Positions 7,132 through 64,000 of a stretch of DNA of 64,000 nucleotides are shown here, in pieces. The DNA comes from Aptenodytes patagonicus (Eukaryota > Chordata > Aves > Sphenisciformes > Spheniscidae). The stretch's first letter is position 1. Each line of letters starts with the position of its first letter. Location: contig NW_027472020.1 in assembly GCF_965638725.1 (NCBI RefSeq), positions 62,001 through 126,000 of the forward strand, in the 5' to 3' direction. The translations under genes and the position numbers were made by a program. The notes under the pieces were generated by a model. It was not told the origin of the DNA. It was given only the letters and a program-made list of their open reading frames with translations, and did no database searches.

Positions 7132-10100
7132 AGTGAACAGCCGTCTGGGCTGCGGTGGCCAGCTACGTCCAACAACAGTTCCTGCTGTGCCAGGTGGGGC
7201 AGCACCCACATCCTCCTTGTCCCCCCCAGAGAAGTGGGCAGTCCCCATGGCCCTGGGGCATGGCCTGCAGTTACACTTCCCCTCCTCAGAAAGCCCACCC
7301 CATAAGTCCCCGCTGGGGGACAAGCAGGGCTCGTGCAAGGGTGGTATCACCTCCGGCAGGTGGTATTGTACCGCAGGGCTGATCCCGGTTGCTGGAGACC
7401 CCTGGATGCCCTCGGGCTGCTTCTGCCCTGACTCCAGCACTGCTTTTTCGGGGCAGGGGAAAAGGAAGGAGAGGGCTCGGCAGCTCCTCCTTAAAGCTCT
7501 CCCCACTGCCCTGGCTCGTGTCTCTGAACAGCAGGAGCGGGCAGGGTCTGGTCCAAAGCACCGTCCCTGGACAGGGCCGCTCCCAGCTCTTCCCTCCAGC
7601 CAGTCCTCACTCTGCAGCCCTTGCCTTCTCTCCTGCTCCAGGGAGTCCGAATTCCAACCCTCGGCTCCTTCGACGCTGTCCCCCAGTGGATCCAGGCTGG
7701 GAACGAGGCCGTGATTACCCAGAGGCCCGTCTTTCGCCTGGCCAGGAATCTGGTGGTTGTCCACAACCTGATGGACGACAAGGACTACCTGCCCGGTAAG
7801 ACGTCGGATTAAACCCTGGCTGGCTGCAGGGTCGTTTCATCCCTGCCCTGGGTCTGAGATGCTCCGCTAAAGCAACTCCCTCTCTGCAGAGCAGGCCCAA
7901 AAATGTTTTTTTTTTTTCCTGGGGGGGGCGATGCGATGACTGCAGTAAGCAGCCCTTGGGAAATGCCTGCGGAAGGGCCAGTGGGCGAGCGCCTCCATCC
8001 CCTTCCTGTGCTTTTCCAGGCAATAAGGAGCTGGAGCCTCTGAAATACGCCAAGGTGGCCACGGACGCCTCTGTGTCCCGGCGAAAAGTGGAGGGCTGCA
8101 TCCTAGGCGTCACGTCCCTCCTCTCTCACTGCCTGGGGAAGGGGGCGAACGTCGCCCTCGTCCTGAGGAACGTTGGGGTGCTCCTCATCGAAGGCAGGAG
8201 AGTGGAAATGAAATTCTACTATGACTTCCTGGAGACCTTGTCCGGGAAGGAGAACCTGGCAAAAGCTGTTTTCAAGGTGAGCGTTTCGGTTTCGCTGTGG
8301 CGCGGGCACTCCCGCGGCAGTGTTGTGGCGATGCTCACGCGTGGCCCGGCCGGGATGCGGTCATCCCACTTGAGTGAGGCGAGAGCTACGGTCCTAACAA
8401 CTCCCCCTGCCTCAGGCTCCTCCGATTCGGAGCGCCTCGGCCGTGCGGAGGGCATCCTGCCATCTTTGCGGTCCTCCCTTGCAGGTCCCCTGGCTGCTGG
8501 ACATGCTGGTGTCCCGGGTGGCACCCGTGGCCTCGCTGAGTGTTTCCGGCCGCGTCATCCTCTTTCCCGAGTGAGTACGTTGGCGGCCGCAGCCGCTGGT
8601 TGGTGCAGACGCTCAAGGTAGCATTTGCTCCTTGTGACCACGGATGTCCTCCCATGGGGACAACCAGGCAGCGGCTCTTGTTGGCATCCCCAGGTTGTAG
8701 TCGGTCCCACGAGGCAGATCTGATGGGAAAGACAGAGGAATTTAGGCAACATTTTCTTCCCGTGGCGGCCAGGGCTTCTTTGCCAGGGGACTCCATTTCC
8801 CAGGGCTGTCCTTGGGGATGGGGCACAGCAGACATTGGAAAAACACGGTAGACTTGGGGAAAAGAACGGCCTTTATGGCCCTTCCAAAGTCTGCCCGTCA
8901 GCAGGTGATTGCGGCGAGCGAGTGCTGGTGGTGCTCTGGGTCACGTCGGCGTCTTCTCCTTGTTGCCAGGTTTGAAACGGAGCTTGTGGCCGAGCCGCTG
9001 CCCAGGCCTCTTCTCAAGACCTCGAGGCAAGTCCCCGGCGGGGACAAGCAGATGAGAAGGGAGGGTTTGCCACATCTCGGGCAAGGCACGAAAGGTAAAG
9101 CAGCTCCCGGCTCCTTTCCACGGCACGGGCAACCAAGTTCTGTCATCGGGTGGGGAAAAGCACCGGCGTTGCGGGTCAAAAGGCTCCGACTTAGGCCAAA
9201 GCTTCATGCCAGCTCGGCCCAGCCTTTTCTCCCGACGACTCGTCGGCTTCACCGAAACGGAGCCCTGGGGTGGGACGTGCCCAAGGGTACGGTGGGAGGA
9301 TGGTGATCCAAGGCCCTCTCCTCCCCCCTCAGAAGTGACCCCACCAAAAGTGTCCCTGTCACCTCCCCGGCATCACCCAGCCCCCTCAGTCCCAACCCGG
9401 GCGCTGATGAGGCGATTGCAAAAGCACGTTGGAAGTGGGGAACCGGGGCAAGCGCCGGTGCTGGGGAGGGTGCCGGGCCTCTGGAGACAGCGGATGGGAG
9501 GGGGAGCAGAACGGCCCTCTCGGATGCTTTGGAAAGAGGCCTGAGCAGCGCTGCCTGTCACCGGGGCCGGCAGCGTCCCGGCGACGCTCTTCTGACGAGG
9601 TCTCTCCTTCCTGTTTCCAGTGGGATTCCCTGGTTTTCCCTTTCCAGCTAGTCCAAGCTCGACAAATGATGAGATACCACCGTTCTGGGAAATCAGGGGG
9701 AAGAGGAGGAGGAGGAGAAGCTCTCGGGTCAGGTGAGGCTCAGGGCTGGCGTCTGCACGGGCTCCTTTTGCCCAGAGAGGCGGTCACTGCCCCATCCCGG
9801 GAAATGTTCAAGGTCAGGTTGGAGGGGGGCTCTGAGCGACCTGATCTAGTCGAAGACGGCCCTGCTCCTCACAGGGAGGCTTGGACTAGATGACCTTCAG
9901 AAGCCCCTTCCAACCCAAAGCCTTCTGTGATTCTGTGATTTCCTGACCCGGCAAGAGCCCATTGCCCAGCCCCAAACACTCGCTGCCCATCGCCGCTCAA
10001 CAGTGGTGACGGCAGCGCCCGGAGGGGCGGGATGGGGCTGCCGGGAGCCCCCTGTTTCACAGGGCTGCTTCCTCTCGGGCCCTTCAGGAGAGCCCCAGCG

Positions 10101-10633
10101 TGGCCTCCTGAGCTGTGCACGGGGACAGCCGAGTGGCAGCCGAGGGTCCTGGCTCAGGGGGTTTCCTCAGCCGAGCCGCCGGCGGCTGCACAAAGAGGCG
10201 CGTGGCTCGCGAGGGCGGGATGTGGCGACAAACCCATCGACCTCCTCAGGTTAGACCTCTCCCATTGTGTCCTTCCAGGCAGCGGCGGGTCATCCTATGT
10301 GGTTCCCCTGGAAAAAAGCAGCCTGCGACCGGCCAACCCAAGGGCAAACCCGCGCCCACCGCCCGAGCACCAAGGCAGAGCCGAGCGCAGGCAGCAGAAC
10401 TTCAGAGCTACGGAGGAGGAGGAGGAGGAGGACTAGTGGAGAAAATCCTCGCTGAAATCGCCACGACGCAGACGGCGAAAGCCAAGCCCTCCCACGCTCG
10501 GGAAGCGGCGACCTTCGTAACACCCGTAATCGCCGTCTTATCGGTAACAAGCTCTGAGGCCAGCCTGCGCGAGGAGCCCGCCTACGAGGTTCTCGGGCAG
10601 CCGCTGCCGAGACCAAGATGGAGAAAACTGTGA
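7132..10633 (+). pseudogene. CCDC81: CCDC81-like HU-domain gene, copy 1 (divergent, disrupted 5' end)
   Basis: First copy of the CCDC81-related gene. Exons: b 7132-7193, c 7642-7795, d 8020-8276, e 8485-8570, f 8970-9094, h 9621-9732, i 10279-10633, with an alternative terminal exon g 9333-9544. From exon c on it nearly matches copies 2-4 and stays open: GVRIPTLGSF, then KVEGCILGVTSLLSHCLGKG, then MKFYYDFLETLSGK. Exon b is much more diverged, and its first full codon, CGA in the other copies, is TGA here in the frame leading into exon c. The promoter and first coding exon seen in copies 2-4 are absent upstream. So it is either a 5'-broken pseudogene or uses an unrecognised upstream exon. The split between a divergent 5' end and a near-identical rest puts a recombination junction near 7.28 kb. 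Confidence 0.7.
9771..9941 (+). mobile_element. CR1 3' tail inside the CCDC81-like gene (copy 1)
   Basis: About 170 bases of CR1 3' end in the intron between exons h and i: CCCAGAGAGG, then TTCAAGGTCAGGTTGG, CTGATCTAGTCGAAG and the ending TTCTGTGATTCTGTGATTT octamer repeats. It sits at the same place in every copy, so it predates the amplification. Confidence 0.88.
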
Positions 10634-10847: not shown

Positions 10848-10853
10848 AATAAA
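10848..10853 (+). terminator. AATAAA polyadenylation signal (CCDC81-like copy 1)
   Basis: AATAAA lies 215 bases past the TGA ending at 10633. The same hexamer is conserved in units 2 and 3 at nearly the same distance, which supports the exon i stop as the gene's end. Confidence 0.6.
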
Positions 10854-14879: not shown

Positions 14880-17433
<2,554 letters not shown>

Positions 17434-18126
17434 TAAACATACCAACTCTACAAGACTAAAATAGTTATTTTTTTACACGCAGGCCATTTTCATTTAAACA
17501 TACCACACCTTGGAGACGACCATAATTACTTTTATGGCTAAGCCCATTTAAAGGGGCAAAACGGACCTTGCCGGTGTCATCCCTAATTATTCTTCATTTC
17601 CCAGCAAATCGGAAAAGGGACCAGTGGAATGAGATTCCCGAGTGTCTGAAATTCCTGTACTTTGCCCGCTTCCATAGAATACTGTCTTTCTTTTCAGAAT
17701 AAATGAAAAGAACTGTCTAAATGCAGGAGACTGTACTATAGGGAGCTGTAAAACGAGAGAACTGGAAAAATGGCAATAAGGGAAACAGCATGTTTCTCCT
17801 CGTGAGAGCTTTAGGTCGAGCGGAGCAGAGCTACTTGTCCTCCCTTAAAGAACAGAGAACTAAATAAAGGTACTCTAAATTAGAGGAGAGCAAGGAACTT
17901 GCAAGGCTCCACCCAGATCTCCTCAGCTATGCTTCGCTATGTCGATTTTGAGGCATGTTTGACAGTTACTGCCACTACATTACACGGTCTTAGGGGCAAT
18001 AAGATGAAAGAAAAGATGCTGAAGGTGAGGTCCGTTGTAAATATGAGCAGATTCTGTTTTATTCCCCGTCTCTTCCAAACAAAACAATCCCATCTGAATA
18101 ACAAAAGACTCTTCTCTCTTGTTTAG

Positions 18127-18276
<150 letters not shown>

Positions 18277-18726
18277 TAAGTGGGGTCCTTCCTTCCCCGT
18301 TCATAATGAATTCCTACTGAAGTCCCTGGGGTTTCCGTCGGCCTCCTAGAAAGGTTTTTCCCTGTTACAGCAATTTTTCTCTTAAAACCGGCGAGGGATG
18401 GAGAATACGCACACTGAGCATCGGCTCGCTGTGACGCCTCAAGGGCTCCGTTCCCCACGGTGCCGACTTTTTTGTCTTATCTAGAAACATAATTCATATA
18501 TCGATTTTGAAGCTCATTCTCATCATCCCTAGTGGTATTCAGCAAATACCTTCTGCCTGGTGCTGGATATACGCAGAATCAGAGAGCACGTGCCGCAGAA
18601 ACAGCTGGGCAAAACCTTTAAGCAGAGAAACAGAAAAGGGGGGAGAAAATAGGGGGTTTGACGCCCGTTTTGAGACGTTTGCAGGACACGGTGACTTATT
18701 TTGGCCAAACAGATATGGCAGTTTTT

Positions 18727-18757
18727 AAAAAAAAAAAAAAAAAAGGGGGGGGGGGGG
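18727..18757. repeat. Poly(A)-poly(G) tract (copy B)
   Basis: An A run followed directly by a run of about 13 G, then a T run. In copies C and D the A run is longer and the G run shorter. Confidence 0.85.
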
Positions 18758-19778
18758 TTATAGCAGGTTGGTTTTTTTTTAAAAAAAAGACATGTTTTTA
18801 GAGACGTGAGCCTTCATTGGTACGTGGTCAGAAGGGGCGATACGTGCCAAAGGCTGATCAATGCCTTAATGTTAAAGGTGAAGCCTAATATCTAAAAATG
18901 CTTGTCTTCCACTAAACCCCACTGACTTGTCAGCGTGTCATCCTGGCCTCTTTTTGAGTAATCTGAGACTTGATCCTGACAAAGCGCCTGTCAAAAAATA
19001 AGCAGCGCAAATCAGAAAGTAATTGGGCCACTACTTAATTTTGCTGTTGCTGATAGCAAGCAAAAGTGTGTGGTTTTTTTTTTTTTTTTTAAGTTTTGTG
19101 ATCTAAATAGCCTAAATAAAAATTCTAGTGCGTGCGTAGGTATAGGCCAGCAAACGTGAAGCAACAGCAGACGTGAAAATTAAGTAATAGGTGGCATTGC
19201 CCTGAAGATTTTCACTTTAGGATCTTAATACACTCTTGACAAGGACTAAGTGATACATTTGTAAAAAAAAGGGATTAATTTTTGACCCTTATTATCTATT
19301 ATGAATAGATAGGTAATAATGTTGCCTGTTACTAGTGGTAGCATGCTCGCGGCTGAGGAAATGGTAGTTTTACTGAGAAAAAAAGGCTTCAACAAGGAAA
19401 CACTTTGGGAAAGGTTGACCCCGAGGGCTCGGCCGCTCTTTTGTTACTTTGCAGGTTTGTGAGAGACAAAACGACATGGGAAATACACAGGCAATTTCTG
19501 TGGGGACCGGCACTGCTCGTCAGCCCCGCGCTGGACCAGGTGAAATAGCAGGAATAGAAGTATCAGAAAAGTTGGGGGAAGAAATGAGAAAATACTAGAA
19601 ACGGATGAAAATATTGGAAGAGATTTGAACTAAACTGTACTTTCTGGCTTTAATAGACCTAAACCAAAAGTGTGTCGTTCCAGGGTGCTGTAGCGGTGAA
19701 GGCTTACCTGCCGAATGCCCGCTGGTATGATTACCACACAGTGAGTAATTTTAAAAACTCTAGTATATTTATTTTTCC

Positions 19779-19860
19779 TACTATGGAAATGATTAGGAAA
19801 ATTTCCATAGTATCCACCGTCACAGGTGTACGGCGTGCTGGGGTGGAGTGTGACTCCACC
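19779..19860. repeat. Paired inverted repeats in GH31 intron 4 (copy B)
   Basis: Stem arms 19779-19790 and 19801-19812 (12 bp perfect), and 19842-19849 with 19853-19860 (8 bp perfect), as in copy A. The only change is in the first loop. Confidence 0.6.
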
Positions 19861-22800
19861 ACCTCTGTTTTACCAACACGTGTCCAGTAGGAGTTTTTAG
19901 CGATGTAAAAAATTACATCTTGGCTAATTTGTTTGCTAATCACTTTGTGGTAATGTAATCCTGTTCAACATGACCAGTAAAAAGGTGGAATAACAGCTGT
20001 AACTGAAGCGCTTCCATGTTTGCTTTTTTTGAACCCCTTCAAGGATGCATAGAACTTCTTTTCTAGGAATGATGGTGTGGAGGAAGACAAAAGTTTTAAA
20101 CAATTCTTACGGCCTCAGGCTTTAAAAGTCACTCCGTTTATCAAGTGTTGTGTAATGGGTTTATATATGCAGAATTTCAGATTGTAATCTTGAAAACACA
20201 TAGTTCTGCATTAAAGAAGGATTGGCACTGACAACTTTCTTAGTATTTATGTATTCATAAACTTTCATTCTAAAAAAAAGCTTAAAATGGAAAATTCAAC
20301 AAAGAGACCAAGTTTTATTTGGGTTTGGTTTGTTTTTTTTTTAATCATGAATAGGGTGAGTACCTTGGCTTTAGGGGACAATTCAGAAATTTACCATCTC
20401 CTTTGGAACATATCAACCTCCATATCCGAGGCGGCTACATCCTCCCTCAGCAAAGCCCTGCTAATACTACATTTTACAGGTATGACTACAATTTAATGTA
20501 ACATTTTTTTGCTTTTTGGGGGCGATATTTAATTAGTGGCCTGGCAAATAAATCGCCTATTAGTGACACGGCGCCTGCATTTGCCTGGACTCCTTATTTT
20601 CAACCTGGGAAAAGCCCAGTTTTCTGGTTTAATGTACACTGTGCTCGGAAGCATTTCCCATTTGGTATAAACATGAGCAGTCCTGAGAGAATCAGGAAGT
20701 ATGGCAGCACGTCAACTTCATGGCAGGTTTTTCTCCTTTTTTGGTTTCCTCCTTTAACGGTAACGCTATGGATCGGGGAAGGCTGGTAACAGAGCTCAGT
20801 TAAGTTGTGTACAATGTCCGTAATAGAAGTGATATTGTATTACCTATGTTGAGAAAGATAAAATGCAATTACCCCAGACAAATATTCTTTTCTTCCATAG
20901 CCGAAGAAACCCGTTGGCGCTCACCGTTGCTTTGAATGACAGTCAGCTTGCAGCAGGTCAGCTTTACTGGGATGACGGGGTGCGCATTGGTAAGTACAAA
21001 GTTTCTTGTTTCCACGCTAAATTAACTAATTCAGAGTCTACAATGCATAAACGTCGCCTCTCTCTAGCTCAGCGCATCGCTGACACGAACAGTTAATGTT
21101 GTATTTCAGGATTAGTCCGTAGTTGTGCAACACGGCGTAGGAAGCAGGAGCACAAACCAGAGAGAAAAAAAATTACAGTAAACCGGTTACACTTAAGTAA
21201 TTAAACTAAAATTACAGTAAAATGTAAAACAGTAACACCGCTAAAATGTAGAATGCTGGCACAGTAGTAACCTAATGTTGTTATTTAGAGAATATATATT
21301 TTGCATGAATTCAGCTGTGCCCTGGGCCTAGGACAAGGTATAGAATAAGGATTTGTTCTCAAACCTGTGGGGAACCTAACCACAGGTGAAGTGGGAAGCT
21401 TTAACTAATTTCCTCGATATTAATAAATTCAAATGGTCTTCAGATAAGACGTATCTAGCAGTCTCTTATCCTTTACGCCTGCAGTGTATTATCCTTGTAA
21501 TAACGCTAAGCTGTCCCCTGAGATCATCGCAAGGAATGCACAAAATTGTGATTTATCTTTTTTTAACATACCAACACATTGCAGGAAGTCCGCACGAGCT
21601 ATACTACACGCAGCACAATTCTTCTATTTAACTTAAAAAAAGAAAAGGTGACCAGCAAATACATTTTACTTCATTCTTTCTTTTTAACAGATGCGTATGA
21701 AGAGCGTGTATATCTGCTGACCTCATTTACTGCTAATCGGGTATGTCACGGTACCTCGCTGGTTTTGAGTACCCGGGGTGATTATTGTTGTATGTTAACT
21801 AAGGTATTTTAATTTGGCTTTTTTTTTTTTAATGTTTCGATATCCCCACACGCTACTAACCCTTTGTGATGGACCAGCTCTTAGCCAGCGTTGTGAAAAC
21901 CGTTGCAGGTCTCTCCGTGTTACTTTTTTTTTTTTTTTTTTTTTAATTAATACAGGCAACATCACACCCCAGATGGATAAACGAATTTTGCAATAAATGG
22001 GGGCAAGTAAATTTACTTCAGCAGGGCACCTCCCCGCACGTGTATTTATATTCAGTGGCTGGCCCAGCCTGAGACCTTCAAGACAGGCGTTGGTTCAGAT
22101 TTGGTCCCTGCACGTCGGTTTTCAGTAAGTGAGGAGGAGGTTTTAACATTAACTTCAAAAATTAACGTTAAGCAAAAAATCCCAGACATACCCGTTCACA
22201 ACTTCTCCTTCTATATATGAAGGAATTTAGGAGTGTTTTGTGTCCGGGCTGCGCTATAATGCCGTGAATATAGTTAAGTTGTATTGAGAACGAATTTAAG
22301 CTGGCTTCAGAGGGTATCTAGTTTAGCTTATCGCTGCGTTTCTTGTATATTCCTGCCGTTATAATTTCTCGTCATTCTGAAAAACGCCAGTTTTTTTCAA
22401 AAAGGATTTGTAGAAAACGAAAGCGCGTATCAACGCAGAAAGGCAATAAGGCCAATATTTTGCCAGCGGTGTGTTCCGCATCATTTTTGCTCATCGTTCC
22501 CATGTAAATGAATACATTTCAGGCAAGCAGCCCGTGCGTATTTTACAGCCTTGCAGTTAAGCGTAGATATCCACGTAGGACACAAATGTACTTGGACAGA
22601 CTAGAAAGAAGTGACTGTACACAAAATCTACCCCATCTGGAATACAGTCACAGTTAGAGCCAGGAAAGTGCTTTCAAATGGTTTAGAAAGGTAGGGGCAG
22701 CGATCGCCAAAGATTTTGACTACGCATCCCCAGCAGTAAGAGTTTTTGAGCGCCTCCCCCCAACATACGCATCTTTATTTATAAATTATATACATATCTA

Positions 22801-24283: not shown

Positions 24284-24670
24284 TATTTATTTTTAAATTG
24301 AAGAGGAGGGAAAAATGGTAAGCCTCAAGTGGGCTGAAAAAAGCGTATTCGGACAAGAAACCGCCCAAGGATAAATCGCTAACTTTCTTTTTCCTCTTCC
24401 TTCAGAATATTTGAGAGAGAAAGGTTTTGCGCCGTGGTTAGGCTGAGCCGAATAACGTGAAGTTTACCTGAATTAAAATTTTGGGGGTGACCTCAACCGT
24501 CCGGGCGGTGCCAGTATCGCAGAATGGTGAAGCGATCCGATCCCCTCGCGCTGCGTCCCACGAGGGCCAAAACCGGGTAAGTCGACGGTTTACGGGCAAA
24601 TCCTGTCGTTGCCGTTAGTTCCGTGCTCTTAACCGCTTGGGGGTTCACCTCTTGGCTGTAATATAACTTG

Positions 24671-25082: not shown

Positions 25083-28000
25083 ATGAGCTCCCACATGGCT
25101 GTCGCTGCTGAGGAGCAACCCTTGAGCGTGAGGCGGATCAAGATGGACTTCTGGGACGGGATGGAGCACGCCTTCATGATGCCCAGCATCACCGCCAAAG
25201 GTACAGGCATCCACAGCCACCGCGGGAGTGCTTACAGGACCAACGGTTGTAGCGCTGTGTGGGTGAGACTCGGCAGTGCAGCCATCGCAGGGGTGTTTCC
25301 ATCTGGGGCCGGGGACATCAATGTCACTTTACATCTGGCAATGTGCCACAGCTCAGGGGGTGTTGGAGGGTTGAGAGCTGGCAGACGCAGAGCGCAACCT
25401 GGTTTTCCTTTGCCTTCCAGAGCGAACCGCCGTCTGGGACGCAGTGGCTGGCTACGTTCAAGAACAGCTCCTGCTGCACAAGGTGGGGCGACACCCGCAT
25501 CCTCTTAGTCCACCCAGGGGAGTGGGGAGTCCCCACGGGCCTGGGGCATGGCCTGCAGTTACTTTTCCCTCCTCAGAAAGCAGGAAACTCACCCCAAAAG
25601 TCCCCGCTGGGGGACAAGCAGGGCTCGTGCAAGGGTGGTATCACCTCCGGCAGGTGGTATTGTACCGCAGGGCTGATCCCGGTCGCTGGAGACCCCTGGA
25701 TGCCCTCGGGCTGCTTCTGCCCTGACTCCAGCACTGCTTTTTCGGGGCAGGGGAAAGGGAAGGAGAGGGCTCGGCAGCTCCTCCTTAAAGCTCTCCCCAC
25801 TGCCCTGGCTCGCGTCTCTGAACAGCAGGAGCGGGCAGGGTCTGGTCCAAAGCACCGTCCCTGGACAGGGCCACTCCCAGCTCTTCCCTCCAGCCAGTCC
25901 TCACCCTGCAGCCCTTGCCTTCTCTCCTGCTCCAGGGAGTCCGAATTCCAACCCTCGGCTCCTTCGACGCTGTCCCCCAGTGGATCCAGGCTGGGAATGA
26001 GATTGTAATTATCCAGAGGCCCGTCTTTCGCCTGGCCAGGAATCTGGCGGTTGTCCACAACCTGATGGATGACAAGGACTACCTGCCCGGTAAGACGTTG
26101 GATTAAACCCTGGCTGGCTGCAGGGTCGTTTCATCCCTGCCCTGGGTCTGAGATGCTCTGCTAAAGCAACTCTTTCTCTGCAGAGCAGGCCCAAAAATGT
26201 TTTTTTTTTTTCCTGGGGGGGGCGATGCGATGACTGCAGTAAGCAGCCCTTGGGAAACGCCTGCGGAAAGGCCAGTGGGCGAGCGCCTCCATCCCCTTCC
26301 TGTGCTTTTCCAGGCAATAAGGAGCTGGAGCCTCTGAAATACGCCAAGGTGGCCACGGACGCCTCTGTGTCCCGGCGAAAAGTGGAGGGCTGCATCCTAG
26401 GCATCACGTCCCTCCTCTCTCACTGCCTGGGGAAGGGGGCGAACGTTGCCCTCATCCTGAGGAACGTTGGGGTGCTCCTCATCGAAGGCAGGAGAGTGGA
26501 AATGAAATTCTACTATGACTTCCTGGAGACCTTGTCCGGGAAGAAGAATCTGGCAAAAGCTGTTTTCAAGGTGAGCGTTTTGGTTTCGCTGTGGCGTGGG
26601 CACTCCCACGGTGGTGTCGTGGCGTTGCCCACGCGTGGCCCGGCCGGGATGCGGTCATCCCACTTGAGCGAGGCGAGACCTACGGTCCTAACAACTCCCC
26701 CTGCCTCGGGCTCCTCCGATTCGGAGCGCCTCGGCCGTGCGGAGGGCATCCTGCCATCTTTGTGGTCCTCCCTTGCAGGTCCCCTGGCTGCTGGACATGC
26801 TGGTGTCCCGGGTGGCACCCGTGGCCTCGCTGAGTGTTTCCGGCCGCGTCATCCTCTTTCCCGAGTGAGTACGTTGGCGGCCGCAGCCGCTGGTTGGTGC
26901 AGACGCTCAAGGTAGCATTTGCTCCTTGTGACCACGGATGTCCTCCCATGGGGACAACCAGGCAGCGGCTCTTGTTGGCGTCCCCAGGTCGTAGTCGGTC
27001 CCACGAGGCAGATCTGATGGGAAAGACAGAGGAATTTAGGCAACATTTTCTTCCCGTGGCGGCCAGGGCTTCTTTGCCAGGGGACTCCATTTCCCAGGGC
27101 TGTCCTTGCGGGTGGGGCACAGCAGACACTGGAAAAACACGGTAGACTTGGGGAAAAGAACGGCCTTTACGGCCCTTCCAAAGTCTGCCCGTCAGCAGGT
27201 GATTGCGGCGAGCGAGTGCTGGTGGTGCTCTGGGTCACGTCGGCGTCTTCTCCTTGTTGCCAGGTTTGAAACGGAGCTTGTGGCCGAGCCGCTGCCCAGG
27301 CCTCTTCTCAAGACCTCGAGGCGAGTCCCCGGCGGGGACAAGCAGATGAGAAGGGAGGGTTTGCCACATCTCGGGCAAGGCACGAAAGGTAAAGCAGCTC
27401 CCGGCTCCTTTCCACGGCACGGGCAACCAAGTTCTGTCGTCGGGTGGGGAAAAGCACCGGCGTTGCGGGTCAAAAGGCTCCGACTTGGGCCAAAGCTTCA
27501 TGCCAGCTCGGCCCAGCCTTTTCTCCCGATGACTCGTCGGCTTCACCGAAACGGAGCCCTGGGGTGGGACGTGCCCAAGGGTACGGTGGGAGGATGGTGA
27601 TCCAAGGCCCTCTCCTCCCCCCTCAGAAGTGACCCCACCAAAAGTGTCCCTGTCACCTCCCCGGCATCACCCAGCCCCCTCAGTCCCAACCCGGGCGCTG
27701 ATGAGGCGATTGCAAAAGCACGTTGGAAGTGGGGAACCGGGGCAAGCGCCGGTGCTGGGGAGGGTGCCGGGCCTCTGGAGACAGCGGATGGGAGGGGGAG
27801 CAGAACGGCCCTCTCGGATGCTTTGGAAAGAGGCCTGAGCAGCGCTGCCTGTCACCGGGGCCGGCAGCGTCCCGGCGACGCTCTTCTGACGAGGTCTCTC
27901 CTTCCTGTTTCCAGTGGGATTCCCTGGTTTTCCCTTTCCAGCTAGTCCAAGCTCGAGAAATGATGAGATACCACCGTTCTGGGAAATCAGGGGGAAGAGG

Positions 28001-28921
28001 AGGAGGAGAAGCTCTCGGGTCAGGTGAGGCTCAGGGCTGGCGTCTGCACGGGCTCCTTTTGCCCAGAGAGGCGGTCACTGCCCCATCCCGGGAAACGTTC
28101 AAGGTCAGGTTGGAGGGGGCCTCTGAGCGACCTGATCTAGTCGAAGACGGCCCTGCTCCTCGCAGGGAGGCTTGGACTAGACGACCTTCAGAAGCCCCTT
28201 CCAACCCAAAGCCTTCTGTGATTCTGTGATTTCCTGACCCGGCAAGAGCCCGTTGCCCAGCCCCAAACACTCGCTGCCCGTTGCCGCCCAACAGTGGTGA
28301 CGGCAGCGCCCGGAGGGGCGGGATGGGGCTGCCGGGAGCCCCCCGTTTCACAGGGCTGCTTCCTCTCGGGCCCTTCAGGAGAGCCCCAGCGTGGCCTCCT
28401 GAGCTGTGCACGGGGACAGCCGTGCGGCAGCCGAGGGTCCTGGCTCAGGGGGTTTCCTCAGCCGAGCCGCCGGCGGCTGCACAAAGAGGCGCGTGGCTCG
28501 CGAGGGCAGGATGTGGCGACAAACCCATCGACCTCCTCAGGTTATACCTCTCCCATTGTGTCCTTCCAGGCAGCGGCGGGTCATCCCAGGCGGTTCCTCT
28601 GGAAAAAAGCAGCCTGCGACCGGCCAACCCAAGGGCAAACCCGCGCCCACCGGCCAAGCACCAAGGCAGAGCCGAGCGCAGGCAGCAGAACTTCAGAGCT
28701 ACGGAGGAGGAGGAGGAGGACTAGTGGAGAAAATCCTCGCTGAAATCGCCACGACGCAGACGGCGAAAGCCAAGCCCTCCCACGCTCGGGAAGCGGCGAC
28801 CTTCGTAACACCCGTAATCGCCGTCTTATCGGTAACGAGCTCTGAGGCCAGCCTGCGCGAGGAGCCTGCCTACGAGGTTCTCGGGCAGCCGCTGCTGAGA
28901 CCAAGATGGAGAAAACTGTGA
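25083..28921 (+). CDS. CCDC81: CCDC81-like protein with two HU-type domains, copy 2
   Basis: Exons: a 25083-25200, b 25421-25482, c 25936-26089, d 26314-26570, e 26779-26864, f 27264-27388, h 27915-28023, i 28570-28921 (TGA). Every junction has GT/AG ends and matching phase, giving 420 aa. Residues about 40-111 form the first HU-like domain: VWDAVAGYVQEQLLLHK, GVRIPTLGSF (the HU beta-arm G-V-I-x-GxF pattern), VIIQRPVFRLARNL. Residues about 113-197 form the second: VEGCILGITSLLSHCLGKG, NVGVLLIEGRRVEMKFYYDF. These match the tandem HU fold at the N-terminus of vertebrate CCDC81, a centrosome-linked protein. The CCDC81 coiled coil is replaced by a basic, low-complexity tail. An alternative terminal exon g (27627-27838) would give 337 aa. 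The AATAAA at 29136 favours the longer form. Family call strong, function unknown. Confidence 0.8.
28062..28232 (+). mobile_element. CR1 3' tail inside the CCDC81-like gene (copy 2)
   Basis: Same intronic CR1 3' fragment as at 9771-9941, ending in TTCTGTGATTCTGTGATTT. Confidence 0.88.
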
Positions 28922-35536: not shown

Positions 35537-35821
<285 letters not shown>

Positions 35822-36572: not shown

Positions 36573-36722
<150 letters not shown>

Positions 36723-37170
36723 TAAGTGGGGTCCTTCCTTCCCCGTTCATAATGAATTCCTACTGAAGTCCCTGGGGTTTCCGTCGGCCTCCTAGAAAGG
36801 TTTTTCCCTGTTACAGCAATTTTTCTCTTAAAACCGGCGAGGGATGGAGAATACGCACACTGAGCATCGGCTCGCTGTGACGCCTCAAGGGCTCCGTTCC
36901 CCACGGTGCCGACTTTTTTGTCTTATCTAGAAACATAATTCATATATCGATTTTGAAGCTCATTCTCATCATCCCTAGTGGTATTCAGCAAATACCTTCT
37001 GCCTGGTGCTGGATATACGCAGAATCAGAGAGCACGTGCCGCAGAAACAGCTGGGCAAAACCTTTAAGCAGAGAAACAGAAAAGGGGGGAGAAAATAGGG
37101 GGTTTGACGCCCGTTTTGAGACATTTGCAGGGCACGGTGACTTATTTTGGCCAAACAGATATGGCAGTTT

Positions 37171-37172
37171 TT

Positions 37173-37202
<30 letters not shown>
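37171..37202. repeat. Poly(A)-poly(G) tract (copy C)
   Basis: Longer A run and a run of about eight G compared with copy B. Confidence 0.85.
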
Positions 37203-37206
<4 letters not shown>

Positions 37207-38218: not shown

Positions 38219-38300
38219 TACTATGGAAATGATCAGGAAAATTTCCATAGTATCCACCGTAACAGGTGTACGGCGTGCTGGGGTGGAGTGTGACTCCACC
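38219..38300. repeat. Paired inverted repeats in GH31 intron 4 (copy C)
   Basis: Arms 38219-38230 with 38241-38252 and 38282-38289 with 38293-38300, both still perfect. Confidence 0.6.
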
Positions 38301-42718: not shown

Positions 42719-43346
42719 TTTATTTATTTTTAAATTGAAGAGGAGGGAAAAATGGTAAGCCTCAAGTGGGCTGAAAAAAGCGTATTCGGACAAGAAACCG
42801 CCCAAGGATAAATCGCTAACTTTCTTTTTCCTCTTCCTTCAGAATATTTGAGAGAGAAAGGTTTTGCGCCGTGGTTAGGCTGAGCCGAATAACGTGAAGT
42901 TTACCTGAATTAAAATTTTGGGGGTGACCTCAACCGTCCGGGCGGTGTCAGTATCGCAGAATGGTGAAGCGATCCGATCCCCTCGCGCTGCGTCCCACGA
43001 GGGCCAAAACCGGGTAAGTCGACGGTTTACGGGCAAATCCTGTCGTTGCCGTTAGTTCCGTGCTCTTAACCGCTTGGGGGTTCACCTCTTGGCTGTAATA
43101 TAACTTGTATCTACGATTCTTTGGTTCTGTGAAGGGTCTGTTTGTGGCAGCTGGGGTAAAATAAGGATTTTTGCCCAACATGGGACGGCCGAGCGTATCC
43201 CGCCGGGGCTGATCGACAAGAGCACGCAGTTTCCATCTGCGCTCTCTGCCGGTTCGAGGAGAATGCGCAGGATTACGGGGCTGGGCCAGCGCGGCCGTAC
43301 GTCGGCTGGACGGTGTGCACGGAGGAAGGAGCTGGCGGCAGCCCTG

Positions 43347-43519: not shown

Positions 43520-46500
43520 ATGAGCTCCCACAGGGCTGTCGCTGCTGAGGAGCAACCCTTGAGCGTGAGGCGGATCAAGATGGACTTCTGGGACGGGATG
43601 GAGCACGCCTTCATGATGCCCAGCATCACCACCAAAGGTACAGGCATCCACAGCCACCGCGGGAGTGCTTACAGGACCAACGGTTGTAGCGCTGTGTGGG
43701 TGAGACTCGGCACTGCAGCCATCTCAGGGGTGTTTCCATCTGGGGCCGGGGACATCAATGTCACTTTACATCTGGCAATGTGCCAGAGCTCAGGGGGTGT
43801 TGGAGGGTTGAGAGCTGGCAGACGCAGAGCGCAACCTGGTTTTCCTTTGCCTTCTAGAGCGAACCGCCGTCTGGGACGCAGTGGCTGGCTACGTTCAAGA
43901 ACAGCTCCTGCTGCACAAGGTGGGGCGACACCCGCATCCTCTTAGTCCACCCAGGGGAGTGGGGAGTCCCCACGGGCCTGGGGCATGGCCTGCAGTTACT
44001 TTTCCCTCCTCAGAAAGCAGGAAACTCACCCCAAAAGTCCCCGCTGGGGGACAAGCAGGGCTCGTGCAAGGGTGGTATCACCTCCGGCAGGTGGTATTGT
44101 ACCGCGGGGCTGATCCCGGTCGCTGGAGACCCCTGGATGCCCTCGGGCTGCTTCTGCCCTGACTCCAGCACTGCTTTTTCGGGGCAGGGGAAAGGGAAGG
44201 AGAGGGCTCGGCAGCTCCTCCTTAAAGCTCTCCCCACTGCCCTGGCTCGCGTCTCTGAACAGCAGGAGCGGGCAGGGTCTGGTCCAAAGCACCGTCCCTG
44301 GACAGGGCCACTCCCAGCTCTTCCCTCCAGCCAGTCCCTCACTCTGCAGCCCTTGCCTTCTCTCCTGCTCCAGGGAGTCCGAATTCCAACCCTCGGCTCC
44401 TTCGACGCCGTCCCCCAGTGGATCCAGGCTGGGAACGAGGCGGTGATTATCCAGAGGCCCGTCTTTCGCCTGGCCAGGAACCTGGCGGTTGTCCACAACC
44501 TGATGGATGACAAGGACTACCTGCCCGGTAAGACGTCGGATTAAACCCTGGCTGGCTGCAGGGTCGTTTCATCCCTGCCCTGGGTCTGAGATGCTCTGAA
44601 AAAGCAACTCTCTCTCTGCAGAGCAGGCCCAAAAATGTTTTTTTTTTTTCCTGGGGGGGGCGATGCGATGACTGCAGTAAGCAGCCCTTGGGAAACGCCT
44701 GTGGAAAGGCCAGTGGGCGAGCGCCTCCATCCCCTTCCTGTGCCTTTCCAGGCGATAAGGAGCTGGAGCCTCTGAAATACGCCAAGGTGGCCACGGACGC
44801 CTCTGTGTCCCGGCGAAAAGTGGAGGGCTGCATCCTAGGCGTCACGTCCCTCCTCTCTCACTGCCTGGGGAAGGGGGCGAACGTTGCCCTCGTCCTGAGG
44901 AACGTTGGGGTGCTCCTCATCGAAGGCAGGAGAGTGGAAATGAAATTCTACTACGACTTCCTGGAGACCTTGTCCGGGAAGAAGAACCTGGCAAAAGCTG
45001 TTTTCAAGGTGAGCGTTTCAGTTTTGCTGTGGCGCGGGCACTCCCACGGCGGTGTCGTGGCGCTGCCCACGCGTGGCCCGGCTGGGATGCGGTCATCCCA
45101 CTTGAGCGAGGCGAGACCTACGGTCCTAACAACTCCCCCTGCCTCGGGCTCCTCCGATTCGGAGCGCCTCGGCCGTGCGGAGGGCATCCTGCCATCTTTG
45201 TGGTCCTCCCTTGCAGGTCCCCTGGCTGCTGGACATGCTGGTGTCCCGGGTGGCACCCGTGGCCTCGCTGAGTGTTTCCGGCCGCGTCATCCTCTTTCCC
45301 GAGTGAGTACGTTGGCGGCTGCAGCCGCTGGTTGGTGCAGACGCTCAAGGTAGCATTTGCTCCTTGTGACCACGGATGTCCTCCCATGGGGACAACCAGG
45401 CAGTGGCTCTTGTTGGCGTCCCCAGGCTGTAGTCGGTCCCACGAGGCAGATCTGATGGGAAAGACAGAGGAATTTAGGCAACATTTTCTTCCCGTGGCGG
45501 CCAGGGCTTCTTTGCCAGGGGACTCCATTTCCCAGGGCTGTCCTTGCGGGTGGGGCACGGTAGACGTTGGAAAAACACGGTAGACTTGGGGAAAAGAACG
45601 GCCTTTACGGCCCTTCCAAAGTCTGCCCGTCAGGAGGTGATTGCGGCGAGCGAGTGCTGGTGGTGCTCTGGGTCACGTCGGCGTCTTCTCCTTGTTGCCA
45701 GGTTTGAAACGGAGCTTGTGGCCGAGCCGCTGCCCAGGCCTCTTCTCAAGACCTCGAGGCGAGTCCCCGGCGGGGACAAGCAGATGAGAAGGGAGGGTTT
45801 GCCACATCTCGGGCAAGGCACGAAAGGTAAAGCAGCTCCCGGCTCCTTTCCACGGCACGGGCAACCAAGTTCTGTCGTCGGGTGGGGAAAAGCACCGGCG
45901 TTGCGGGTCAAAAGGCTCCGACTTGGGCCAAAGCTTCATGCCAGCTCAGCCCAGCCTTTTCTCCCGACGACTCGTCGGCTTCACCGAAACGGAGCCCTGG
46001 GGTGGGACGTGCCCAAGGGTACGGTGGGAGGATGGTGATCCAAGGCCCTCTCCTCCCCCCTCAGAAGTGACCCCACCAAAAGTGTCCCTGTCACCTCCCC
46101 GGCATCACCCAGCCCCCTCAGTCCCAACCCGGGCGCTGATGAGGCGATTGCAAAAGCACGTTGGAAGTGGGGAACCGGGGCAAGCGCCGGTGCTGGGGAG
46201 GGTGCCGGGCCTCTGGAGACAGCGGATGGGAGGGGGAGCAGAACGGCCCTCTCGGATGCTTTGGAAAGAGGCCTGAGCAGCGCTGCCTGTCACCGGGGCC
46301 GGCAGCGTCCCGGCGACGCTCTTCTGACGAGGTCTCTCCTTCCTGTTTCCAGTGGGATTCCCTGGTTTTCCCTTTCCAGCTAGTCCAAGCTCGAGAAATG
46401 ATGAGATACCACCGTTCTGGGAAATCAGGGGGAAGAGGAGGAGGAGAAGCTCTCGGGTCAGGTGAGGCTCAGGGCTGGCGTCTGCACGGGCTCCTTTTGC

Positions 46501-47359
46501 CCAGAGAGGCGGTCACTGCCCCATCCCGGGAAACGTTCAAGGTCAGGTTGGAGGGGGCCTCTGAGCGACCTGATCTAGTCGAAGACGGCCCTGCTCCTCG
46601 CAGGGAGGCTTGGACTAGACGACCTTCAGAAGCCCCTTCCAACCCAAAGCCTTCTGTGATTCTGTGATTTCCTGACCCGGCAAGAGCCCGTTGCCCAGCC
46701 CCAAACACTCGCCGCCCATCGCTGCCCAACAGTGGTGACGGCAGCGCCCGGAGGGGCGGGATGGTGCTGCCGGGAGCCCCCCGTTTCACAGGGCTGCTTC
46801 CTCTCGGGCCCTTCAGGAGAGCCCCAGCATGGCCTCCTGAGCTGTGCACGGGGACAGCCGTGCGACAGCCGAGGGTCCTGGCTCAGGGGGTTTCCTCAGC
46901 CGAGCCGCCGGCGGCTGCACAAAGAGGCGCGTGGCTCGCGAGGGCGGGATATGGCGACAAACCCATCGACCTCCTCAGGTTAGACCTCTCCCATTGTGTC
47001 CTTCCAGGCAGCGGCGGGTCATCCCAGGCGGTTCCCCTGGAAAAAAGCAGCCTGCGACCAGCCAACCCAAGGGCAAACCCGCGCCCACCGGCCAAGCACC
47101 AAGGCAGAGCCGAGCGCAGGCAGCAGAACTTCAGAGCTACGGAGGAGGAGGAGGAGGACTAGTGGAGAAAATCCTCGCTGAAATCGCCACGACGCAGACG
47201 GCGAAAGCCAAGCCCTCCCACGCTCGGGAAGCGGCGACCTTCGTAACACCCGTAATCGCCGTCTTATCGGTAACGAGCTCTGAGGCCAGCCTGCGCGAGG
47301 AGCCCGCCTACGAGGTTCTCAGGCAGCCGCTGCCGAGACCAAGATGGAGAAAACTGTGA
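43520..47359 (+). CDS. CCDC81: CCDC81-like protein with two HU-type domains, copy 3
   Basis: Exons: a 43520-43637, b 43858-43919, c 44374-44527, d 44752-45008, e 45217-45302, f 45702-45826, h 46353-46461, i 47008-47359 (TGA), with alternative terminal exon g 46065-46276. All junctions keep GT/AG and phase, predicting 420 aa. Differences from copy 2 are few and do not break the frame: SSHRAV for SSHMAV, SITTK for SITAK, GDKELEP for GNKELEP, and a TCTAG rather than TCCAG acceptor before exon b. HU-like domains are as in copy 2. Its own promoter and AATAAA are present, so it could be expressed independently. Confidence 0.8.
46500..46670 (+). mobile_element. CR1 3' tail inside the CCDC81-like gene (copy 3)
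   Basis: Same intronic CR1 3' fragment as in copies 1 and 2. Confidence 0.88.
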
Positions 47360-59833: not shown

Positions 59834-60461
59834 TTTATTTATTTTTAAATTGAAGAGGAGGGAAAAATGGTAAGCCTCAAGTGGGCTGAAAAAAGCGTAT
59901 TCGGACAAGAAACCGCCCAAGGATAAATCGCTAATTTATTTTTTCCTCTTCCTTCAGAATATTTGAGAGAGAAAGGTTTTGCGCCGTGGTTAGGCTGAGC
60001 CGAATAACGTGAAGTTTACCTGAATTAAAATTTTGGGGGTGACCTCAACCGTCCGGGCGGTGTCAGTATCGCAGAATGGTGAAGCGATCCGATCCCCTCG
60101 CGCTGCATCCCACGAGGGCCAAAACCGGGTAAGTCGACGGTTTACGGGCAAATCCTGTCGTTGCCGTTAGTTCCGTGCTCTTAACCGCTTGGGGGTTCAC
60201 CTCTTGGCTGTAATATAACTTGTATCTACGATTCTTTGGTTCTGTGAAGGGTCTGTTTGTGGCAGCTGGGGTAAAATAAGGATTTTTGCCCAACATGGGA
60301 CGGCCGAGCGTATCCCGCCGGGGCTGATCGACAAGAGCACGCAGTTTCCATCTGCGCTCTCTGCCGGTTCGAGGAGAATGCGCAGGATTACGGGGCTGGG
60401 CCAGCGCGGCCGTACGTCGGCTGGACGGTGTGCACGGAGGAAGGAGCTGGCGGCAGCCCTG

Positions 60462-60576: not shown

Positions 60577-60634
60577 GGCCGCCGGGACGGTGGGTCCTGC
60601 ACCCTGGAGGAGCGTCCATAGGACGAAGGCAGGG

Positions 60635-63600
60635 ATGAGCTCCCACAGGGCTGTCGCTGCTGAGGAGCAACCCTTGAGCGTGAGGCGGATCAAGATGGAC
60701 TTCTGGGACGGGATGGAGCACGCCTTCATGATGCCCAGCATCACCGCCAAAGGTACAGGCATCCACAGCCACCGCGGGAGTGCTTACAGGACCAACGGTT
60801 GTAGCGCTGTGTGGGTGAGACTCGGCACTGCAGCCATCTCAGGGGTGTTTCCATCTGGGGCCGGGGACATCAATGTCACTTTACATCTGGCAATGTGCCA
60901 GAGCTCAGGGGGTGTTGGAGGGTTGAGAGCTGGCAGACGCAGAGCGCAACCTGGTTTTCCTTTGCCTTCTAGAGCGAACCGCCGTCTGGGACGCAGTGGC
61001 TGGCTACGTTCAAGAACAGCTCCTGCTGCACAAGGTGGGGCGACACCCGCATCCTCTTAGTCCACCCAGGGGAGTGGGGAGTCCCCACGGGCCTGGGGCA
61101 TGGCCTGCAGTTACTTTTCCCTCCTCAGAAAGCAGGAAACTCACCCCAAAAGTCCCCGCTGGGGGACAAGCAGGGCTCGTGCAAGGGTGGTATCACCTCC
61201 GGCAGGTGGTATTGTACCGCGGGGCTGATCCCGTTCGCTGGAGACCCCTGGATGCCCTCGGGCTGCTTCTGCCCTGACTCCAGCACTGCTTTTTCGGGGC
61301 AGGGGAAAGGGAAGGAGAGGGCTCGGCAGCTCCTCCTTAAAGCTCTCCCCACTGCCCTGGCTCGCGTCTCTGAACAGCAGGAGCGGGCAGGGTCTGGTCC
61401 AAAGCACCGTCCCTGGACAGGGCCACTCCCAGCTCTTCCCTCCAGCCAGTCCCTCACTCTGCAGCCCTTGCCTTCTCTCCTGCTCCAGGGAGTCCGAATT
61501 CCAACCCTCGGCTCCTTCGACGCCGTCCCCCAGTGGATCCAGGCTGGGAACGAGGCGGTGATTATCCAGAGGCCCGTCTTTCGCCTGGCCAGGAACCTGG
61601 CGGTTGTCCACAACCTGATGGATGACAAGGACTACCTGCCCGGTAAGACGTCGGATTAAACCCTGGCTGGCTGCAGGGTCGTTTCATCCCTGCCCTGGGT
61701 CTGAGATGCTCTGAAAAAGCAACTCTCTCTCTGCAGAGCAGGCCCAAAAATGTTTTTTTTTTTTCCTGGGGGGGGCGATGCGATGACTGCAGTAAGCAGC
61801 CCTTGGGAAACGCCTGTGGAAAGGCCAGTGGGCGAGCGCCTCCATCCCCTTCCTGTGCCTTTCCAGGTGATAAGGAGCTGGAGCCTCTGAAATACGCCAA
61901 GGTGGCCACGGACGCCTCTGTGTCCCGGCGAAAAGTGGAGGGCTGCATCCTAGGTGTCACGTCCCTCCTCTCTCACTGCCTGGGGAAGGGGGCGAACGTT
62001 GCCCTCGTCCTGAGGAACGTTGGGGTGCTCCTCATCGAAGGCAGGAGAGTGGAAATGAAATTCTACTACGACTTCCTGGAGACCTTGTCCGGGAAGAAGA
62101 ACCTGGCAAAAGCTGTTTTCAAGGTGAGCGTTTCAGTTTTGCTGTGGCGCGGGCACTCCCACGGCGGTGTCGTGGCGCTGCCCACGCGTGGCCCGGCTGG
62201 GATGCGGTCATCCCACTTGAGCGAGGCGAGACCTACGGTCCTAACAACTCCCCCTGCCTCGGGCTCCTCCGATTCGGAGCGCCTCGGCCGTGCGGAGGGC
62301 ATCCTGCCATCTTTGTGGTCCTCCCTTGCAGGTCCCCTGGCTGCTGGACATGCTGGTGTCCCGGGTGGCACCCGTGGCCTCGCTGAGTGTTTCCGGCCGC
62401 GTCATCCTCTTTCCCGAGTGAGTATGTTGGCGGCTGCAGCCGCTGGTTGGTGCAGACGCTCAAGGTAGCATTTGCTCCTTGTGACCACGGATGTCCTCCC
62501 ATGGGGACAACCAGGCAGCGGCTCTTGTTGGCGTCCCCAGGCTGTAGTCGGTCCCACGAGGCAGATCTGATGGGAAAGACAGAGGAATTTAGGCAACATT
62601 TTCTTCCCGTGGCGGCCAGGGCTTCTTTGCCAGGGGACTCCATTTCCCAGGGCTGTCCTTGCGGGTGGGGCACGGTAGACGTTGGAAAAACACGGTAGAC
62701 TTGGGGAAAAGAACGGCCTTTACGGCCCTTCCAAAGTCTGCCCGTCAGCAGGTGATTGCGGCGAGCGAGTGCTGGTGGTGCTCTGGGTCACGTCGGCGTC
62801 TTCTCCTTGTTGCCAGGTTTGAAACGGAGCTTGTGGCCGAGCCGCTGCCCAGGCCTCTTCTCAAGACCTCGAGGCGAGTCCCCGGCGGGGACAAGCAGAT
62901 GAGAAGGGAGGGTTTGCCACATCTCGGGCAAGGCACGAAAGGTAAAGCAGCTCCCGGCTCCTTTCCACGGCACGGGCAACCAAGTTCTGTCGTCGGGTGG
63001 GGAAAAGCACCGGCGTTGCGGGTCAAAAGGCTCCGACTTGGGCCAAAGCTTCATGCCAGCTCAGCCCAGCCTTTTCTCCCGACGACTCGTCGGCTTCACC
63101 GAAACGGAGCCCTGGGGTGGGACGTGCCCAAGGGTACGGTGGGAGGATGGTGATCCAAGGCCCTCTCCTCCCCCCTCAGAAGTGACCCCACCAAAAGTGT
63201 CCCTGTCACCTCCCCGGCATCACCCAGCCCCCTCAGTCCCAACCCGGGCGCTGATGAGGCGATTGCAAAAGCACGTTGGAAGTGGGGAACCGGGGCAAGC
63301 GCCGGTGCTGGGGAGGGTGCCGGGCCTCTGGAGACAGCGGATGGGAGGGGGAGCAGAACGGCCCTCTCGGATGCTTTGGAAAGAGGCCTGAGCAGCGCTG
63401 CCTGTCACCGGGGCCGGCAGCGTCCCGGCGACGCTCTTCTGACGAGGTCTCTCCTTCCTGTTTCCAGTGGGATTCCCTGGTTTTCCCTTTCCAGCTAGTC
63501 CAAGCTCGAGAAATGATGAGATACCACCGTTCTGGGAAATCAGGGGGAAGAGGAGGAGGAGAAGCTCTCGGGTCAGGTGAGGCTCAGGGCTGGCGTCTGC

Positions 63601-64000
63601 ACGGGCTCCTTTTGCCCAGAGAGGCGGTCACTGCCCCATCCCGGGAAACGTTCAAGGTCAGGTTGGAGGGGGCCTCTGAGCGACCTGATCTAGTCGAAGA
63701 CGGCCCTGCTCCTCGCAGGGAGGCTTGGACTAGACGACCTTCAGAAGCCCCTTCCAACCCAAAGCCTTCTGTGATTCTGTGATTTCCTGACCCGGCAAGA
63801 GCCCGTTGCCCAGCCCCAAACACTCGCCGCCCGTTGCCGCCCAACAGTGGTGACGGCAGCGCCCGGAGGGGCGGGATGGGGCTGCCGGGAGCCCCCCGTT
63901 TCACAGGGCTGTTTCCTCTCGGGCCCTTCAGGAGAGCCCCAGCGTGGCCTCCTGAGCTGTGCACGGGGACAGCCGTGCGGCAGCCGAGGGTCCTGGCTCA
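60635..64000 (+). CDS. CCDC81: CCDC81-like protein with two HU-type domains, copy 4 (3' end off window)
   Basis: Exons: a 60635-60752, b 60973-61034, c 61489-61642, d 61867-62123, e 62332-62417, f 62817-62941, h 63478-63586, with alternative terminal exon g 63180-63391. Exon i should start near 64133 by comparison with copy 3 and lies outside the window. From about 60063 to 63391 it aligns to copy 3 at a constant offset of 17115 with no visible indel and only scattered substitutions, making it the closest pair of copies in the array. Exon a reads SSHRAV and SITAK. All visible junctions keep phase. Confidence 0.78.
63615..63785 (+). mobile_element. CR1 3' tail inside the CCDC81-like gene (copy 4)
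   Basis: Same intronic CR1 3' fragment as in copies 1-3. Confidence 0.88.

What the first reader, a model, noticed from the sequence alone, without database searches (positions are those of the whole stretch)
7280..64000. Head-to-tail array of about 18-kb units co-amplifying a CCDC81-like HU gene with GH31 exons
Matching landmarks recur at steady offsets: CCDC81-like exon g ends at 9544, 27838, 46276 and 63391; GH31 E1 starts at 17161, 35606 and 53384. All copies are on one strand and near-identical apart from a few discrete indels. Both window edges cut through units, so the array continues. Pairing a digestive-enzyme fragment with a duplicated HU-domain gene is an unusual amplicon, and the intact member is the HU gene.
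Basis: seen in the sequence. Interest (0 to 1): 0.75.

Follow-up and report, generated by a model that had tools for sequence, protein, structure and literature searches.

The report
Penguin tandem array, CCDC81-like plus glucosidase fragment
A stretch of penguin DNA about 18,000 letters long has been copied head to tail several times, each copy carrying a bird-type CCDC81-like gene and a broken piece of an intestinal sugar-digesting enzyme gene; this looks like ordinary recent gene duplication with the enzyme piece as a passenger.

Summary
The array is in the sequence. The window holds parts of five head-to-tail units (U0 tail, U1, U2, U3, U4 start), 17.1-18.4 kb apart, one strand, with 0.9-1.5% substitutions between whole units. 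Copy-specific indels, including a direct-repeat-flanked CR1-type insertion only in U2, argue against an assembly loop; no reads were available. The HU gene is an 8-exon, 420-residue bird CCDC81-like gene, intact in U2 and U3; U4 is cut by the window end; U1 lacks exon 1 and has a stop in exon 2. The GH31 part is E1-E7 of a MGAM/SI-type gene without the exons for either catalytic aspartate; its E8 is decayed in U1-U3, while U0 keeps an intact 3' end. Within the array exons diverge like introns, so selection is not shown. Best explanation: recent unequal crossing-over amplified a CCDC81-like gene, with a dead enzyme fragment as passenger. New member of a known kind.

The parts
578..1964 (+). U0: MGAM/SI-like exons E5-E7 (578-702, 1124-1212, 1915-1964); earlier exons would lie left of the window
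   Evidence: exon mapping, AG/GT borders
3778..4677 (+). U0: intact MGAM/SI-like E8 (3778-3948) and terminal E9 (4615-4677, ends TAA)
   Evidence: translation equals the last 77 residues of king penguin P0129;
7132..10633 (+). U1: CCDC81-like pseudogene, exons 2-8, no exon 1 found, TGA in exon 2
17161..21740 (+). U1: MGAM/SI-like fragment E1-E7, 224 codons open
24406..24579 (+). U1: decayed MGAM/SI-like E8 with three in-frame stops; no E9 found at E up to 1
   Evidence: 86% identical to U0 over 391 bases
25083..28921 (+). U2: intact CCDC81-like gene, 8 exons, 420 aa (25083-25200, 25421-25482, 25936-26089, 26314-26570, 26779-26864, 27264-27388, 27915-28023, 28570-28921)
   Evidence: homologs
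34043..34676 (-). CR1-type insertion present in U2 and absent from U1 and U3, flanked by the direct repeat CATTTCAT (approximate borders)
   Evidence: naming as CR1 is recalled
35606..40180 (+). U2: MGAM/SI-like fragment E1-E7
42843..43016 (+). U2: decayed MGAM/SI-like E8
43520..47359 (+). U3: intact CCDC81-like gene, 8 exons, 420 aa
53384..57972 (+). U3: MGAM/SI-like fragment E1-E7
59958..60131 (+). U3: decayed MGAM/SI-like E8
60635..63576 (+). U4: CCDC81-like gene, exons 1-7, 303 codons open; exon 8 would lie beyond the window

Best explanation
This is a recent, still homogenising tandem segmental duplication in a penguin genome, most likely king penguin. Shown: the repeated unit holds an 8-exon bird CCDC81-like gene (two HU-CCDC81 domains plus a basic, glycine-rich tail) followed on the same strand by exons E1-E7 of a MGAM/SI-type GH31 gene. 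Shown: in U1-U3 the GH31 fragment lacks the exons for both catalytic aspartates and has a decayed E8, so it should not make an alpha-glucosidase. Inferred: an older CCDC81-like / MGAM-SI-like neighbourhood was duplicated once (its trace is the 14% diverged, decayed E8). Inferred: unequal crossing-over or replication-based duplication with one end inside the MGAM/SI-like gene then produced the 18-kb amplicon, which multiplied by unequal exchange, with gene conversion giving the mosaic similarity. Inferred: the CCDC81-like gene is the cargo that could matter (more copies and variants of a bird HU protein); the enzyme piece is a passenger. What the protein does is unknown; CCDC81 proteins are found at ciliary microtubules (CCDC81b in Tetrahymena, passages of PMC11961760), but this bird-type protein lacks the part of CCDC81 after the HU pair.
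For: Array geometry and divergence. Intact 420-aa models in U2 and U3 with AG/GT at each internal exon edge. Pfam HU-CCDC81_euk_1 and _2 above cutoff on spliced U1 exons 2-4 and on king penguin P0242. GH31 second-domain match covers only profile positions 259-328 of 328, plus the third domain; best solved relative is MGAM 9kz6, residues 1488-1709; no match with E below 0.5 for the exons before E1. E8 has three stops in U1-U3 but is intact in U0. Mosaic signs: U0 and U3 share a 198-base absence that U1 and U2 do not, U2 and U3 share a 516-base absence that U1 does not; informative sites in U0-U3 are split 6/3/2 over the three groupings. King penguin proteins P0129, P0242, P0261 and P0300 share the contig length 602,863, with P0242 standing for 13 sequences and P0129 for 8.
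Against: No reads or depth seen; the genome search gave no answer in 7 of 7 tries. Within the array, CCDC81-like exons differ as much as introns (U2-U3: 17/1083 vs 34/1903) and changes are 12 nonsynonymous to 7 synonymous, so selection to keep the extra copies is not shown. E3-E7 of the GH31 fragment have no difference in 406 sites against 20/1879 in introns (P 0.036, subset chosen after the fact), a weak hint that this piece may not be pure passenger. The breakpoints of the first duplication were not found. Cluster sizes may include isoforms or other species and are not copy numbers.
Confidence: 0.8

Rival explanations
1. Assembly artefact: one or two real units repeated by a graph loop or by unmerged haplotypes.
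For: U3-U4 are 99.6% identical over the overlap, a level that two alleles could show.
Against: Four head-to-tail CCDC81-like copies lie in one sequence; U1 has 73 private differences in the U1-U4 overlap, U2 has 16. U2 has a direct-repeat-flanked insertion that U1 and U3 lack, and U1 keeps a 516-base segment that U2 and U3 lack. King penguin is the named source of clusters of 13 CCDC81-like and 8 SI-like proteins, and Humboldt penguin of two CCDC81-like clusters (2 and 8 sequences) with one contig length, 325,156.
Confidence: 0.07
2. The MGAM/SI-like fragment is itself a working gene (a short GH31-derived protein or a fused transcript running into the CCDC81-like gene), so the unit is a two-gene cassette.
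For: E1-E7 are open in U1-U3, with AG/GT borders; E3-E7 are identical in U1-U3; a 249-aa SI-like protein of king penguin is listed under NCBI; both genes lie on the same strand.
Against: Catalytic-residue exons absent, no start exon found, E8 decayed in U1-U3. U1-U2 differ by 7 nonsynonymous and 0 synonymous changes, and over E1-E7 exon and intron divergence are alike (9/672 vs 63/3898, P 0.74). At about 1% divergence an open frame is expected by chance (my estimate, not computed in a call).
Confidence: 0.1
3. The array is a sex-chromosome or germline-restricted ampliconic family kept by copy-number conflict.
For: Ampliconic and recently homogenised; a CCDC81 protein sits in ciliary microtubules (passages of PMC11961760), so a sperm role is conceivable.
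Against: Nothing in the window places it on a chromosome; CCDC81-like proteins are listed for many birds, several per species.
Confidence: 0.05

Closest known systems
Avian CCDC81-like (HU-CCDC81) multigene expansion (recalled: Burroughs, Kaur, Zhang and Aravind 2017, Cell Cycle; the DOI I tried is not held)
   Same: Both HU-CCDC81 domains, bird-type protein, several copies. Best clusters of Humboldt penguin, storks, condor, eagles and cranes are 68-91% identical over 75-84% of the query (that query still held 'exon g').
   Different: Here the copies lie in an 18-kb unit with a truncated MGAM/SI-like gene; linkage in other birds was not testable.
[quoted passage not shown]
   Same: Residues 21-206 of king penguin P0242 match chain residues 25-210, E 2.1e-25.
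   Different: No match to the remaining 486 residues of the 696-residue chain; instead a basic, glycine-rich tail.
Maltase-glucoamylase / sucrase-isomaltase (GH31)
   Same: E1-E7 align with the C-terminal domain of MGAM (9kz6 1488-1709) and with a chicken protein named SI at 75%.
   Different: Only the end of the TIM barrel and the third domain; exons with both catalytic aspartates missing.
Tandem segmental duplications of vertebrates (PMC13431229, passages seen)
   Same: Large tandem copies of low divergence; the passages say that tandem duplications are favoured across vertebrates and that bird genomes have the smallest duplication content.
   Different: Its main text holds neither 'penguin' nor 'CCDC81' (0 occurrences each).

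Membership tests
HU-CCDC81 (CCDC81-like) | Both HU-CCDC81 domains (PF14908, PF18289) above the curated cutoff | tested here: met
   Spliced U1 exons 2-4: 33.1 and 81.6 bits, cutoffs 26.1; king penguin P0242: 41.7 and 79.4 bits. The intact U2 and U3 models were not scanned themselves.
HU-CCDC81 (CCDC81-like) | HU fold in three dimensions | tested here: inconclusive
   AlphaFold2 model of P0242 has mean pLDDT 36.6; not used for a fold search
Canonical CCDC81 | Long region with coiled coils after the HU domains (coiled-coil content recalled from the name) | tested here: not met
   Match of P0242 to CCDC81 of 8snb ends at residue 210 of 696
GH31 MGAM/SI alpha-glucosidase | GH31 sequence similarity | tested here: met
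   PF01055 (2.8e-27) and PF21365 (1.6e-26); 9kz6 E 3.9e-175
GH31 MGAM/SI alpha-glucosidase | Catalytic nucleophile (WIDMNEP motif) and acid/base (LGDN motif) aspartates | tested here: not met
   PF01055 match starts at profile position 259. tblastn of bird relatives P0130 and P0137, which hold both motifs, and P0127 and P0121, which hold LGDN, finds nothing for those exons with E below 0.5; only chance-level hits (20-28% identity, E 0.56-7.6). Which residues are catalytic is recalled.
Tandem segmental duplication | Direct repeats over 1 kb and 90% identity, head to tail (definition recalled) | tested here: met
Tandem segmental duplication | Present in the genome rather than the assembly (reads, depth) | not testable with these tools
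   No reads held; whole-genome search not answered

The most novel reading that the evidence does not exclude
In penguins a MGAM/SI-type intestinal glucosidase locus has been broken up and turned into an ampliconic CCDC81-like array. If penguins have no working copy left elsewhere, the array records the loss of a starch/sugar-digesting enzyme in a fish-eating lineage together with selection for many variants of a bird HU protein, perhaps one that recognises foreign molecules as proposed for the bird expansion (recalled).
Probability: 0.1. Interest if true: 0.6.

Novelty: new member of a known kind. Interest (0 to 1): 0.3.

Why it matters
It gives a clear case of a bird CCDC81-like array being made and homogenised, with indels and a retroelement-type insertion that mark single copies. 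It also flags that 'sucrase-isomaltase-like' proteins listed for king penguin include at least one 249-residue product without the catalytic part, which matters for counts of digestive genes in penguins.

Tried and rejected
My own first 337-aa model, used as the query, contained it; homologs showed that it is skipped and the model was replaced by the 420-aa one. Rejected: purifying selection inside the array as support. Rejected: fold search, since the model was too poor. No Rfam match at gathering thresholds in the window. Pfam gave 0 families for minus-strand ORFs 15579-16397, 15250-15609 and 12933-13283 and for 14969-15397, and Exo_endo_phos_2 at E 0.2, below cutoff, for 16346-16681, so CR1 naming rests on recall.

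Protein searches list only the best 120 of 156, 220 and 132 hits; counts 'of 352' refer to the distinct proteins so listed. Candidates are length-limited, so full-length bird MGAM or SI could not appear.

Literature: 'CCDC81' with 'penguin' 0 papers; HU superfamily / lineage-specific expansion / birds / CCDC81, at least 3 of 4 terms, 0 papers; 'CCDC81' 56 papers, 40 listed, none about bird gene families by title; [quoted passage not shown] Nothing on this array was seen in the listings (3 papers; 20 of 4,176; 20 of 15,215; 20 of 255). Passages only were seen of PMC6487185, PMC13431229, PMC11961760 and PMC10863267.

Full report
The observation. Self-comparison of the window shows, among matches of 500 bases or more, only direct repeats at unit offsets of 17.1-18.4 kb and their multiples. 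I call the units U0 (1-7122, tail only), U1 (7123-25411), U2 (25412-43848), U3 (43849-60963) and U4 (60964-64000, start only). A MAFFT alignment gives 1.39% (U1-U2), 1.46% (U1-U3) and 0.93% (U2-U3) substitutions over 17.1-17.7 kb and 16-20 indel events per pair.

Whose DNA. The CCDC81-like piece matches a Humboldt penguin protein at 95% over 56% of the query and a rockhopper penguin protein at 93% over 69%. A second search returned a king penguin 'sucrase-isomaltase, intestinal-like' protein, P0129, at 99% over 62% of the query, cluster of 8 sequences, longest contig 602,863 bases. P0242 is 94.8% identical to the U3 model over 405 aligned columns, 17 of them gaps; its annotated start and glycine run differ. 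P0300 matches U3 exon 1 (34 residues) and exon 8 (117 residues) at 100%, differs in one residue over exons 1-3, and its record skips exons 4 and 5. The last 77 residues of P0129 equal the translation of U0 E8-E9, and its start reads through the intron before E3. King penguin or a close relative is therefore most likely; the exact record was not identified. Cluster sizes may include isoforms or other species and do not equal copy number.

The HU gene. Splice borders and homologs give eight exons. U2: 25083-25200, 25421-25482, 25936-26089, 26314-26570, 26779-26864, 27264-27388, 27915-28023, 28570-28921, 420 residues. U3 is likewise complete (43520-47359). U4 has exons 1-7 open and is then cut. 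U1 has no exon 1 that tblastn could find, its flank left of 7123 is not alignable to the other units there, and its exon 2 carries TGA. P0242 matches solved CCDC81 (8snb) only over residues 25-210 of 696, so the bird protein keeps the HU pair and lacks the rest.

The GH31 part. E1-E7 of U1 (17161-17277, 18127-18275, 19455-19539, 19684-19740, 20355-20479, 20901-20989, 21691-21740) give 224 open codons, best matched by the C-terminal domain of MGAM among solved structures and, by score, by a chicken protein named SI at 75% among listed proteins. MGAM versus SI was not resolved. The exons before E1 carry the WIDMNEP and LGDN motifs of the catalytic aspartates (recalled as catalytic); tblastn with four bird relatives finds nothing for them with E below 0.5. 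Weak hits of 20-28% identity fall repeatedly near 16356-16532 and its copies, E 0.56-7.5, which I take as chance. In U1-U3, E8 carries three stops and no E9 was found; U0 has intact E8 (3778-3948) and E9 (4615-4677, TAA). The decayed E8 block is 86% identical to U0 over 391 bases, far older than the roughly 1% divergence of the rest, so each unit joins a young and an old segment near 23630.

History. U0 and U3 share a 198-base absence; U2 and U3 share a 516-base absence with TGCC at the join; U2 has about 640 extra bases flanked by CATTTCAT with a CR1-like 3' motif (recalled) that U1 and U3 lack. Informative sites in the U0-U3 overlap fall 6/3/2 on the three possible groupings, while U1-U4 give 20/2/0 with U3 and U4 together. 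This mosaic is what unequal crossing-over and gene conversion produce. Similarity varies along the unit: 13578-14577 has 0 or 1 difference per 500 bases among U1-U3, while 7616-8615 has 11-16.

Selection. In CCDC81-like exons 3-8, U1-U3 have 30/1083 segregating exon sites against 61/1903 in introns (P 0.58); U2-U3 have 17/1083 against 34/1903 (P 0.77). U2-U3 coding changes over the full gene are 7 synonymous and 12 nonsynonymous. For GH31 E1-E7 the figures are 9/672 against 63/3898 (P 0.74); E3-E7 alone are 0/406 against 20/1879 (P 0.036, chosen after looking); E5-E7 with U0 are 0/264 against 21/1699 (P 0.10). The array is too young for this test to show constraint. The case for a working CCDC81-like protein rests on conservation of its exons across birds. 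A chicken CCDC81-like gene, LOC107049387, is reported among the top up-regulated genes in broilers in a study of embryonic tissues (PMC10863267, passage and abstract start seen).

Context in other birds. Several distinct CCDC81-like clusters share one contig length in single species, for instance six listed Anser cygnoides clusters at 3,694,930, and some clusters are large (Gallus gallus 52, Falco naumanni 33, Anas acuta 19 sequences). Whether a MGAM/SI-like piece lies beside them could not be seen, because the collections that I could search for DNA do not hold birds and the genome search gave no answer.

Verdict. A recent tandem array with a member of a bird-wide multigene family as cargo and a dead enzyme fragment as passenger. 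Which chromosome, how many copies, whether U0 is the parental enzyme gene, and whether the pairing is special to penguins remain open.

Noticed in passing
window 13123-14622 (and U2, U3 counterparts): GC-rich block (GC 0.63-0.74, CpG o/e about 0.7) between the CCDC81-like 3' end and GH31 E1, nearly identical in U1-U3 (0 or 1 difference per 500 bases over 13578-14577); could be a CpG island or a recent conversion tract.
   Followed up: partly
window 11863-12463 (and U2, U3 counterparts): Degenerate tandem repeat with a period near 21 bases (one consensus AGGGCCCAAAGCCTCATTTTT), preceded by a TA run that is 56 bases long in U2 and 32 in U3.
   Followed up: no
window 34043-34676: CR1-type insertion in U2, absent from U1 and U3, with direct repeat CATTTCAT, suggesting retrotransposition after the units were duplicated.
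   Followed up: partly
window 3645-7122: U0-U1 spacer of about 3.5 kb, alignable with the other junctions only over 3654-4044; holds a stretch (5002-5395) of 66-67% similarity to pieces at 12877-13265 and 34123-34544 on the opposite strand.
   Followed up: partly
window 14919-16809, minus strand: Open stretches resembling CR1 endonuclease/reverse transcriptase by eye; Pfam support weak or absent.
   Followed up: partly
window 22013-22211 and 40452-40650: About 198 bases present in U1 and U2, absent in U0 and U3; which state is older is unknown.
   Followed up: partly
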